Assembly (NCBI GenBank): GCA_017503805.1
Contig: JAFVSJ010000005.1
Coordinates: forward strand, 141,258 to 205,257
DNA from: Tidjanibacter sp.
GTDB lineage: Bacteria > Bacteroidota > Bacteroidia > Bacteroidales > Rikenellaceae
Reading direction: 5' to 3'
Length of the DNA: 64,000 nucleotides
In this document: positions 12,791 through 60,174 of the stretch, one piece after another
Position numbering within the stretch: position 1 is the stretch's first letter
Layout of the letters: the number at the start of each line of letters is the position of its first letter
The notes under the pieces: model-generated
The model's database searches: none
What the model saw: the letters and a program-made list of their open reading frames with translations, nothing else
What the model was told of the DNA's origin: nothing
Position numbers and translations under genes: made by a program

Positions 12791-14098
12791 TTATTCCCAC
12801 TCAATGGTTGCCGAGGGTTTTGGAGACATATCGTAGCATACCCTATTTACATTGGGCACCTCCTCGAGAATACGTTTAGTAATCTTGTCGAGTATTGCCC
12901 AATCAATATGCTCAATCGAGGCGGTCATAGCATCTATCGTATTGACCGCACGAATGATAACGGGCCAATCATAGCTACGGGCGTTGTTCCTAACACCCAC
13001 AGACTTGAAGTCGGGCACAATGGTAAAGTACTGCCAAACTTTCTTATCAAGACCTGCGATTGCAAACTCCTCGCGCAGAATTGCATCACTCTCCCTTACG
13101 GCCTCAAGCCTATCGCGAGTGATGGCACCAAGGCACCTCACGCCCAAACCGGGACCGGGGAATGGCTGGCGATAGACCATCTCGTAGGGCAGTCCAAGTT
13201 CAACGCCACAGGCCCTCACCTCATCTTTGAAGAGTTGTTTAAGAGGCTCTACGAGGCCAAACTTCATATCTTCGGGCAGGCCACCTACGTTGTGGTGCGA
13301 CTTTACCATCTTGGCGGTCTTGGTACCGCTCTCCACGATATCGGGATATATTGTTCCTTGACCGAGGAAGTCTATGCCATCAAGTTTGCGGGCCTCCTCC
13401 TCAAACACTCTAATAAACTCGCCACCAATAATTTTCCTCTTCTGTTCGGGGTCCTCTACACCCTCGAGCTTTGTGAGGAAACGGTCGGTAGCGTCAACAT
13501 AGACGAGGTTGGCACTGAGTTGCTTACCAAACACCTCCACGACAGCCTCGCTCTCGCCCTTGCGCATCAGACCGTGGTTGACGTGTACGCAAACAAGGTT
13601 ATTGCCGATGGCTTTGAGCAGAAGTGCAGCCACAACCGACGAATCGACACCGCCCGACAAAGCCAACAACACCTTCTTATCGCCAACCTGCTGGCGAATC
13701 AGCTCAACTTGGTCGCTGATGAAGTTGGTCATATTCCAGTTAGCCTCAGCCTTGCAAGTATCAAAGACAAAGCTCTTTACGGCATCCTTAATTGCCTGCT
13801 CGTCATTAGTGAAAGCCTCGAGTTTCACCTCGCAACGGGCCTTGTCGTGACCAGCAGCGATAATAGGAAGACCTGCTTCGTAAATCTCGGGGAGCACATC
13901 TATCTCCACACCATCAATAACATTATTCTCACCGCCATTGATAATCACACCTTTAACACCGGGCAAAGCCTTGAGTTCGGCTGCTGTGATATCGTGTGGA
14001 TAAATCTCGCTATAGACACCAAGTGCACGGATTGCCCTTGCAAGTACTGTATTGTGGTGGCTACCGAGATCAAGTATTACAATCATATCTTGTTTCAT
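12791..14098 (-). CDS. guaA: GMP synthase with degenerate glutaminase domain
   Basis: Converts XMP to GMP by ATP-dependent amination. The synthetase half is intact: PP-loop LALSGGVDSSV at about 146-156, the MRKGESEAV block, QGTIYPDIVES, and the C-terminal dimerisation region ending SPKPSATIEWE. The N-terminal glutaminase is not. It begins like a class I amidotransferase (ILDLGSHHNTVLARAIRALGVYSEIYPHD, residues 8-36), but after GLPIIAAGHDKARCE it jumps to the linker SFVFDTCKAEANWN. The GxCxGxQ nucleophile elbow and the His-Glu pair are absent. Total length is 435 residues against about 510 in glutamine-using enzymes. The enzyme is probably ammonia-dependent. Last gene of the purine operon. Confidence 0.95.
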   Translation of the reverse strand: MKQDMIVILDLGSHHNTVLARAIRALGVYSEIYPHDITAAELKALPGVKGVIINGGENNVIDGVEIDVLPEIYEAGLPIIAAGHDKARCEVKLEAFTNDEQAIKDAVKSFVFDTCKAEANWNMTNFISDQVELIRQQVGDKKVLLALSGGVDSSVVAALLLKAIGNNLVCVHVNHGLMRKGESEAVVEVFGKQLSANLVYVDATDRFLTKLEGVEDPEQKRKIIGGEFIRVFEEEARKLDGIDFLGQGTIYPDIVESGTKTAKMVKSHHNVGGLPEDMKFGLVEPLKQLFKDEVRACGVELGLPYEMVYRQPFPGPGLGVRCLGAITRDRLEAVRESDAILREEFAIAGLDKKVWQYFTIVPDFKSVGVRNNARSYDWPVIIRAVNTIDAMTASIEHIDWAILDKITKRILEEVPNVNRVCYDMSPKPSATIEWE

Positions 14099-58611: not shown

Positions 58612-60174
58612 TTACCCTATCGGGAGGTCCACATAGCTCTTATCGAGCGGCATTGACGACACCTCCACAATGGGACAGAATTGATATATCTTCTCAAGCG
58701 AATCATAAATTAGCGAACGTATCATCTTAACGTCATTCTCCTCGAATCCGGCCTCGACAATCTCATCCTGCGACTGCCAACACTCCAGAAGCCTGTAGAG
58801 AATAGCATCTATCACATCATAGGGCGGGAGCTGCTGCTCACCAGACTCGAGCAACATCATCTCCGACGATGGAGACTTCAGCATCGTCTGCTCTGCGATG
58901 ACCTCTCGGCTGGAATTGATGTATCGGGCAAGCGAATAAACGTCACTCTTATAGAGGTCACCCAACAGGCCTATCATACCTCCCGTATCGCCATAGAGAG
59001 TGAGCGCGCCCACGGCCAATTCAGTCTTATTGGAGCTATTGATGGGTACATATCCCCACTTTTCGCACACCGCCATAAAAAGCGCAGTCCTCAAGCGCAG
59101 TTGGAAATCAACCTCAAGCTTCTTTCTATCGGGAGCTCCAATAGCAGCCACAATAGTATCGAGGCTGGCTCGATAAATCTCCGTCAAAGGCACAGTCATC
59201 AACTGAACACCCAATTGACGTGCAAGCATCTCTGCATCATCGGCCGAGTGGTCATTGGAGTAGCGCGAAGGCATCTGCAGTGCCACCACATTCTCCGCCC
59301 CCAGCGCATCCACAAGTATGGCTGCAGCCACAGAAGAGTCAATCCCTCCTGTCAAAACTATACAAGCCTTTTTGCCCGGATGGTTTTTGCACATATAATC
59401 ACGCGCTGCAAGTTTGAGCGCACCATATACATTGGCGGTTTTATCCTGGTAGGGAATCTCCACATTCTGCTCCGAGTGGGAGGTGTCCACGAAACATATC
59501 TCTTCATCGAAGCTATTCAGCAGTGCGACAGCCTTACCTTGTGCATTGAAAGCGGCCGAGCTACCGTCATAGACAAACTCGCTCGAACCACCAACGTGAT
59601 TGACGAAAATCACATTCGCATCAGCCATAAATGCCTTCTGAGAAAGCGTATTGTAACGTTTCTCGATGCGGCCCTGGTGGTAGCGATCCGCTCCCATCAC
59701 CACAATGGTACCGGCATTCGAAAAGTCGTGATCGAGCATAAAATCGGCACCTACGGCCACCGCAACCCTCTCTCCGGCCACGGTGATAAACTCATATCCC
59801 CTACCCGATGATAAGTAAGCTGCATCCACATCGCCTGCAAGAGTCTTCTTGGTTACGAAACGACGGATGTGACGATTTTTGATTACCGCTGCAGCGCTAA
59901 CCGTACCTCCACTGCGTTTACGGATAGGCAGACCAACGAGAACTGCAATATCATCACAAAATGCAGCAATCTCTACAAGAGACTGCTCTGCCTTATCGAG
60001 GAAGTTACTACGTACGAGCAAAGAGTGAGCGGGAACACCTGTAATGGCTTGCTCGGCAAAGACAACGAGTTGAGCGCCCTGCTTTTTAGCCTCGGCGATT
60101 GCGTCGATAATTTTGTACTTGTTGTACTCGAAGTTACCACACTGGTAGTTAAGTTGAGCAATAGCTACTTTCAT
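58612..60174 (-). CDS. nadE: NAD synthetase with inactivated glutaminase domain
   Basis: Converts deamido-NAD to NAD+. The C-terminal synthetase has the PP-loop VLTGGIDSSVAAAIL, RYSNDHSADDAEMLA and NSSNKTELAVG, so it should work. The N-terminal domain (1 to about 250) is a nitrilase fold with Glu41 (VFAEQAITG) and a Lys near 109-110, but where the nucleophile motif ICED is expected it reads VGAD (141-144). Cys is Gly142 and the Glu is Ala143. Glutamine hydrolysis should be lost and ammonia used instead. 520 residues. It heads the unit with rseC and rnf, with a promoter upstream. Confidence 0.95.
   Translation of the reverse strand: MKVAIAQLNYQCGNFEYNKYKIIDAIAEAKKQGAQLVVFAEQAITGVPAHSLLVRSNFLDKAEQSLVEIAAFCDDIAVLVGLPIRKRSGGTVSAAAVIKNRHIRRFVTKKTLAGDVDAAYLSSGRGYEFITVAGERVAVAVGADFMLDHDFSNAGTIVVMGADRYHQGRIEKRYNTLSQKAFMADANVIFVNHVGGSSEFVYDGSSAAFNAQGKAVALLNSFDEEICFVDTSHSEQNVEIPYQDKTANVYGALKLAARDYMCKNHPGKKACIVLTGGIDSSVAAAILVDALGAENVVALQMPSRYSNDHSADDAEMLARQLGVQLMTVPLTEIYRASLDTIVAAIGAPDRKKLEVDFQLRLRTALFMAVCEKWGYVPINSSNKTELAVGALTLYGDTGGMIGLLGDLYKSDVYSLARYINSSREVIAEQTMLKSPSSEMMLLESGEQQLPPYDVIDAILYRLLECWQSQDEIVEAGFEENDVKMIRSLIYDSLEKIYQFCPIVEVSSMPLDKSYVDLPIG

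What the first reader, a model, noticed from the sequence alone, without database searches (positions are those of the whole stretch)
12791..14098. GMP synthase that has lost its glutaminase
The 435-residue GuaA keeps the first ~80 residues of a class I glutaminase, then skips the region that should carry the GxCxGxQ nucleophile and the His-Glu pair, and continues into a normal ATP-pyrophosphatase domain. The frame is uninterrupted and the remnant is still folded-looking, so this is a stable architecture rather than a sequencing error. The enzyme should use free NH3 only, or a separate partner glutaminase.
Basis: partly seen in the sequence, partly recalled or inferred. Interest (0 to 1): 0.8.

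Follow-up and report, generated by a model that had tools for sequence, protein, structure and literature searches.

The report
GMP synthase without a glutaminase
A gut bacterium, like many others, makes the nucleotide GMP with an enzyme that has lost the part that takes nitrogen from glutamine, so it very probably uses free ammonia directly, a form of this enzyme that a published survey of genomes did not list.

Summary
The gene at 12791-14098 lies on the minus strand, is open, and encodes 435 residues. It keeps ~80 residues of a class I glutaminase, has Gly where the catalytic Cys belongs, lacks the His-Glu segment, and continues into an intact ATP-pyrophosphatase and dimerisation domain.

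It is not an oddity of one genome. The 80 best loci of a genome scan, from Bacteroides, Rikenellaceae, Lachnospiraceae and others, all carry this form. By the tree they are one clade that arose in Bacillota and reached Bacteroidota by transfer; a ~327-residue ATPase-only version nests inside. Of 59 carrier genomes tested, 44 also have a normal GuaA. In 15, five from the window's genus, it is the only GuaA found and no GuaA-type glutaminase passes the family cut-off. In this genus it sits behind guaB, where sister species carry full-length guaA.

The remnant is under purifying selection about as strong as the catalytic domain's, so it is probably a working docking half-domain. Best explanation: a horizontally spread, ammonia-only GMP synthetase that passes NCBI's glutamine-hydrolysing model. 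No assay or structure could be run. A 2012 table lists guaA as 100% fused in 730 genomes; my searches found no description of this form.

The parts
12791..14098 (-). short guaA, 435 aa, glutaminase-less GMP synthetase
13859..14098 (-). residues 1-80: retained N-terminal half of the class I glutaminase domain, with R21 and R24 of the interface helix alpha1 invariant
   Evidence: alpha1 motif from PMC10526850
13850..13852 (-). codon 83 (Gly) at the place of the catalytic Cys
13784..13858 (-). residues 81-105: variable junction; about 98 residues of the E. coli enzyme (nucleophile elbow to His-Glu) are replaced by 13 here
13076..13783 (-). residues 106-341: end of the glutaminase domain (F110, C115, W121 retained) and ATP-pyrophosphatase domain with D253, E256, K266, H268, H269, K291, R295 invariant
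13637..13657 (-). PP-loop SGGVDSS (residues 148-154)
12794..13075 (-). residues 342-435: GMP synthase C-terminal (dimerisation) domain
   Evidence: PF00958, 126.5 bits
14155..15627 (-). guaB, IMP dehydrogenase (makes the substrate XMP), 56 bases upstream of guaA
   Evidence: TIGR01302, 639.6 bits
15640..16932 (-). purA, adenylosuccinate synthase, upstream of guaB
   Evidence: NF002223, 585.4 bits

Best explanation
This is an ammonia-only GMP synthetase. The ATP-pyrophosphatase domain adenylates XMP, made by the guaB product encoded next to it, and free NH3 from the cytoplasm attacks the adenyl-XMP to give GMP; glutamine is not a donor because the nucleophile, the His-Glu pair and most of the second half of the glutaminase are gone. 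The first half of the old glutaminase is kept, probably because its helix alpha1 still packs on ATPPase helices alpha11/alpha12 and supports turnover. The gene belongs to a clade that formed, by the tree, in Bacillota from a two-domain GuaA and moved into Bacteroidota. In many carriers it is a second, ammonia-using isozyme beside the glutamine enzyme; in the window's lineage and several others it is the only one found. Shown: architecture, loss of the catalytic residues, conservation, selection, phylogeny, co-occurrence, the guaB neighbour. Inferred: GMP synthesis from NH3, the role of the remnant, the nitrogen-economy rationale.
For: Catalytic triad absent, ATPPase residues complete. Short GuaA is the only GuaA found, with no TIGR00888 match over cut-off, in 15 genomes: G070, G077-G079, G185, G394, G690, G564, G826, G539 and genus members G005, G009, G012, G013, G016; completeness is told for six: G185 99%, G005 99, G009 90, G012 95, G013 88, G016 92. 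In G005 the only PF00117 matches are a CTP-synthase-sized frame and short GuaA. guaB lies directly upstream in 12 of 12 genus loci. Median dN/dS in genus pairs 0.050 for residues 1-80 (48 of 55 pairs usable) and 0.039 for 106-435 (55 of 55). Literature: two-domain GMPSs and archaeal ATPPase subunits use external ammonia in vitro, and ATPPase activity is independent of the GATase (PMC10526850, passages); isolated PfATPPase keeps ammonia-dependent activity with kcat 5.9-fold lower than the whole enzyme, and PfGMPS_C89A keeps ammonia activity (PMC4673825, passages).
Against: No assay, no expression data, no structure (prediction switched off). A non-class-I or very divergent glutaminase acting in trans is not excluded; sub-cut-off TIGR00888 matches in frames of 197-605 aa, not assigned by me, exist in short-only genomes. 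Completeness is unknown for 9 of the 15 short-only genomes. The ~327-aa form lacks the remnant altogether, so the remnant is not needed in every member. In 44 of 59 carrier genomes tested a full GuaA is also present, so there the short one need not carry the flux.
Confidence: 0.85

Rival explanations
1. Two-subunit enzyme: a separate glutaminase, as in archaea, supplies ammonia to the short GuaA.
For: Archaeal GMPSs work this way (PMC10526850); the interface helices of the ATPPase are conserved.
Against: No TIGR00888 match over cut-off in 15 short-only genomes; G005 (99% complete) has only a CTP-synthase-sized frame and short GuaA as PF00117 matches. The retained N-terminal half would occupy the docking face (inference).
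Confidence: 0.06
2. A paralogue with another job: not a GMP synthetase, or a regulator that dimerises with the full-length GuaA.
For: Full GuaA coexists in 16 of 20, 19 of 21 and 9 of 18 carrier genomes tested; the dimerisation domain is intact.
Against: It is the only GuaA found in 15 tested genomes and stands behind guaB in the window's genus; catalytic residues are invariant across 36 short and 7 full sequences.
Confidence: 0.06
3. Decaying relic in organisms that live on salvaged guanine.
For: Rather small genomes in the genus (1.25-2.4 Mb, some incomplete); one relative with an internal stop (G401).
Against: Open frame and low dN/dS throughout, the remnant included.
Confidence: 0.02

Closest known systems
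Bacterial two-domain GMP synthetase (GuaA; E. coli 1GPM)
   Same: ATPPase and dimerisation domains over their whole length; the first ~80 residues of the glutaminase; best PDB match (425.2 bits)
   Different: About 98 residues with Cys, His and Glu replaced by 13; 435 instead of 525 residues
Archaeal two-subunit GMP synthetase, ATPPase subunit (2DPL, 6JP9)
   Same: ATPPase without a glutaminase on the chain; uses ammonia on its own in vitro (PMC10526850)
   Different: Closer in sequence to bacterial two-domain enzymes (329.8 bits for 6JP9 against 389.2 for the ATPPase part of 1GPM); no partner found; a half-glutaminase is kept
Single-domain (type N) NAD synthetase
   Same: An N-type ATP pyrophosphatase without glutaminase that uses free ammonia (PMC3376133, passages)
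   Different: Other substrate; that paper's Table 1 gives 44% without glutaminase for nadE (886 genomes) but 100% fused for guaA (730 genomes)
AsnA beside AsnB; vertebrate CPS I beside CPS II (both recalled)
   Same: Ammonia-using counterpart of a glutamine-using enzyme; CPS I keeps an inactive glutaminase domain
   Different: Recalled, not tested here; AsnA is not homologous to AsnB, and CPS I lost the Cys by substitution, not by an internal deletion

Membership tests
Glutamine-hydrolysing two-domain GuaA (NF000848) | ATPPase plus C-terminal domain | tested here: met
   TIGR00884 459.5 bits, PF00958 126.5 bits; NF000848 540.8 bits over its cut-off of 400
Glutamine-hydrolysing two-domain GuaA (NF000848) | Complete class I glutaminase domain | tested here: not met
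   PF00117 1-76 of 190; TIGR00888 43 bits against a cut-off of 172.15
Glutamine-hydrolysing two-domain GuaA (NF000848) | Catalytic Cys-His-Glu | tested here: not met
   Gly at the Cys position, His-Glu segment missing; 0 of 96 short relatives have Cys there
Two-subunit GMP synthetase | Separate GuaA-type glutaminase encoded in the genome | tested here: not met
   None over the TIGR00888 cut-off in 15 short-only genomes. The window's own genome (59% complete) was searched with PF00117 only: two matches, the CTP synthase frame and short GuaA
GMP synthetase (XMP to GMP), any donor | Catalytic and substrate-binding motifs of the ATPPase (DXXES, K-SHH, KD(D/E)V(K/R)) | tested here: met
   D253, E256, S257, K266, H268, H269, K291, D292, E293, V294, R295 invariant in 43 sequences; motifs from PMC10526850
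GMP synthetase (XMP to GMP), any donor | Enzyme activity with NH3 and not Gln | not testable with these tools
   no assay

The most novel reading that the evidence does not exclude
A horizontally moving, ammonia-only GMP synthetase with a selected half-glutaminase is a general nitrogen adaptation of gut anaerobes: first acquired as a second isozyme, then displacing the glutamine enzyme, with similar internal deletions made separately in other Bacillota. In the window's genus the NAD synthetase glutaminase has also lost its catalytic Cys, so nucleotide and cofactor amidation there has partly switched from glutamine to ambient ammonia.
Probability: 0.45. Interest if true: 0.82.

Novelty: new variant of a known kind. 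Interest (0 to 1): 0.72.

Why it matters
GMP synthetase is a textbook glutamine amidotransferase, and a survey table gives its gene as always fused to its glutaminase. A widespread ammonia-only form in common gut bacteria would mean that a core nucleotide pathway there depends on available ammonia, that the current name (glutamine-hydrolysing GMP synthase) is wrong for a whole clade, and (inference) that glutamine-analogue inhibitors of GuaA should miss it. The half-domain gives a natural test of which part of the glutaminase supports the ATPPase.

Tried and rejected
Partner glutaminase: searched with PF00117 and TIGR00888; none over the TIGR00888 cut-off in the short-only genomes. Hidden triad: E31, H35 and C115 are invariant in 96 short sequences, but E31 and C115 are shared with full-length GuaA and none lies in a glutaminase motif; C89 is in 89 of 96. 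Nitrogen-related neighbourhood: ORF clusters around the 80 loci show no shared nitrogen gene that I recognised (judged by eye from sequence starts). Rfam in 11 loci found no purine or glutamine riboswitch (3 matches: two c-di-AMP in L115, one tRNA in L066); the window itself was not searched. Transfer by recombination at the 3' end of guaA: tandem full and short copies share at most 19 identical end bases, in one locus, too weak. Independent truncations: four other Bacillota short forms (L185-L188) have different junctions and fall outside the main clade, but a single origin is not rejected (AU p 0.167 on a smaller set of 68 rows). Plasmid or phage carriage: of the three best plasmid records, H1 carries only chromosomal-type genes in all 10 annotated, the stretch of H2 seen has an integrase and mobile-element-like genes beside tandem guaA genes, and H3 has no gene annotation there but tet(W), so carriage by a mobile element is not excluded for H2 and H3; no phage record exceeds 60% identity (17 records).

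Rows dropped or relabelled: one search labelled by length; 7 sequences of odd length ('other', some of them full-length copies) were left out of the trees. In one search (145 rows thinned to 96 at 95% identity) the length rule mislabelled three rows (L175, L170 and the contig-cut L113 copy, all really full-length); L175 and that L113 copy were dropped, L170 was relabelled, and 29 short loci picked by hand stood for the clade beside the new ones. One search found guaB in 26 of 27 loci. One search used 73 distinct coding sequences of exactly 435 codons.

Full report
WHAT IS THERE. The gene lies on the minus strand, 14098 to 12791, and encodes 435 residues. HMMs see three parts: the first 76 of 190 positions of the class I glutaminase (residues 6-79), the whole guaA C-terminal model (124-434; 459.5 bits) and the whole dimerisation domain. 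Alignment with E. coli GuaA puts Gly83 on Cys86 and shows about 98 residues replaced by 13; the same gap, with the FHPE segment missing, is seen against other full-length relatives. Nevertheless the protein passes the cut-off of NCBI's glutamine-hydrolysing GMP synthase model (540.8 against 400 bits), and two PLSDB records name the 435-aa form so.

HOW COMMON. In the window's genus (23 genomes) 12 including the window's carry the complete short gene, 2 more (G011, G022) carry it only in pieces, 6 carry a full-length GuaA (two of these frames, G004 and G010, run longer upstream) and in 2 (G002, G008) none was found; G003 has both a short piece at a contig edge and a full copy on another contig that groups with other Bacteroidales families. 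This scan favours close relatives. Draws spread over a group give the rate, each count including the genome the draw is centred on: 4 of 158 Bacteroidales, 2 of 395 in the window's phylum, 8 of 146 in the order of Robinsoniella (2 with remnant, 6 ATPase-only), and 14 of 398 in its phylum (13 with remnant, of which 4 lie outside the main clade, and 1 ATPase-only; the other 38 of 52 hits are full-length). Searches used E 1e-130, so diverged or broken copies are missed. Among 81 relatives of B. faecis, itself included, 17 match: 11 with remnant, 5 ATPase-only and 1 with an internal stop. So it is widespread but patchy.

ANCESTRY. A tree of the ATPPase region (81 rows) puts 36 short and ATPase-only rows in one clade (100/100), sister to 8 full-length rows from the phylum of Robinsoniella (93/92, not a starred node); 10 Bacteroidota rows nest inside (99/96) next to Robinsoniella (95/90), and the 5 ATPase-only rows nest inside too (100/99) (with 96 rows, agrees after correcting three labels). 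The simplest reading is one loss of the glutaminase core in the main clade, horizontal transfer into Bacteroidota, and a later loss of the remnant. Four further Bacillota short forms (G690, G564, G826, G539) lie outside this clade with other junctions, one still holding the FHPE segment without a Cys; separate deletions are likely but one origin is not rejected (p 0.167 on 68 rows).

DISPLACEMENT. guaB precedes short guaA in 12 of 12 genus loci, and precedes full guaA in 5 of 6 loci of sister species (the sixth begins near a contig end). Their guaB proteins are 74-76% identical to the window's (5 loci) while guaA is 42-48% identical (6 loci), and a guaB tree keeps the 17 genus rows together (SH-aLRT 96, quick method, with 9 outgroup rows chosen because they carry the short gene). 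So guaA was swapped while guaB stayed; other flanking genes were not shared in those loci. In 8 loci a full and a short guaA stand in tandem: seven (L060, L064, L067, L076, L086, L098, L104) and one, suggesting acquisition beside the resident gene before its loss.

ALONE OR TOGETHER. A full GuaA coexists in 16 of 20 genomes, 19 of 21 and 9 of 18, 44 of 59 in all; this includes all 12 ATPase-only genomes tested (11, 1). The remaining 4, 2 and 9 genomes have the short form alone, without any TIGR00888 match over the cut-off. Genomes were picked because they carry a short form, and the five genus members because no full one had been seen, so these are not population rates. Several are drafts.

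SELECTION. In 96 short sequences residues 1-58 have a mean commonest-residue frequency of 0.914 (19 of 58 invariant), 136-435 have 0.917 and the junction 81-105 has 0.657. Median dN/dS among 55 genus pairs (usable pairs in brackets) is 0.050 for 1-80 (48), 0.034 for 1-58 (47), 0.110 for 81-105 (27) and 0.039 for 106-435 (55); among 32 closer pairs of the whole set it is 0.037, 0.008, 0.081 (31) and 0.025. The remnant is maintained. In P. falciparum GMPS helix alpha1 of the glutaminase contacts helices alpha11 and alpha12 of the ATPPase (PMC10526850, section read), and the isolated ATPPase has a 5.9-fold lower kcat with ammonia than the whole enzyme (PMC4673825, passages). R21 and R24 of the alpha1 motif and the alpha11/alpha12 motifs are invariant in 36 short and 7 full sequences; the second basic residue and the Glu of the alpha1 motif (K/R)(K/R)XRE are not kept in the window's protein (RAIRA). 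I infer that the half-domain still docks there.

KNOWN OR NOT. Two reviews, of which I saw passages and one section, name two-domain and two-subunit GMPSs (PMC10526850, PMC9312489). Table 1 of PMC3376133 (passages) gives guaA as 100% fused in 730 genomes, with none without glutaminase. Seven searches of the library on this point listed no paper whose title or abstract start describes a GuaA without glutaminase; one search matched 1,626 papers of which 12 were listed, and one search listed two enterococcal or resistance-gene papers that hold the words truncated guaA (PMC10936028, PMC7766396), not read. PMC5552732 on nitrogen use in Prevotella ruminicola holds no mention of GMP in its main text. 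Subscription papers and database curation were not searched.

NAD SYNTHETASE. The window's NadE (58612-60174, minus) keeps a nitrilase-type glutaminase domain, but the ICEDIW stretch of 5KHA aligns with VGADFM, Gly142 in place of the Cys that I recall as catalytic. Of eight further loci fetched, four from short-GuaA genus members (G005, G019, G020, G022) and two from full-GuaA ones (G007, G015) also have Gly there, read by eye; L211 (another family) is a different, shorter protein and L212 (G008) gave no match. So this loss is older than, or independent of, the guaA change. The window's CTP synthase keeps GICLGMQ, so not all glutaminases are lost.

CHECK. 

Noticed in passing
window 58612-60174 (-); L205-L210: NAD synthetase with a glutaminase domain whose ICEDxW Cys is Gly (VGADFM); also Gly in G005, G019, G020, G022 and in full-GuaA sisters G007 and G015: a second probably dead glutaminase in this genus.
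   Followed up: partly
L114, L116, L117, L119, L120 and L160, downstream of short or ATPase-only guaA: An integrase-like protein follows the gene in all six, with a regulator-like protein between in the first five and a mobilisation-like protein after it except in L120 (names judged by eye, no family search). guaA is an integration site of mobile elements in other bacteria (listing and abstract starts only).
   Followed up: partly
L185-L188 (G690, G564, G826, G539): Short GuaA proteins outside the main clade with different internal deletion junctions; L187 keeps RFHPEMVDT but no Cys. Possibly convergent losses.
   Followed up: partly
L144-L149, L152-L161, L191: ATPase-only GuaA of about 327-340 aa, nested in the short clade and present beside a full GuaA in all 12 genomes tested.
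   Followed up: partly
L015 (G003:C83): Full-length GuaA with GIFYGAQ (Phe at the catalytic Cys) in a genus member that also holds a piece of short guaA; the contig may be contamination.
   Followed up: no
G401:C1:3460004-3460828: Short guaA relative with an internal stop in a relative of B. faecis.
   Followed up: no
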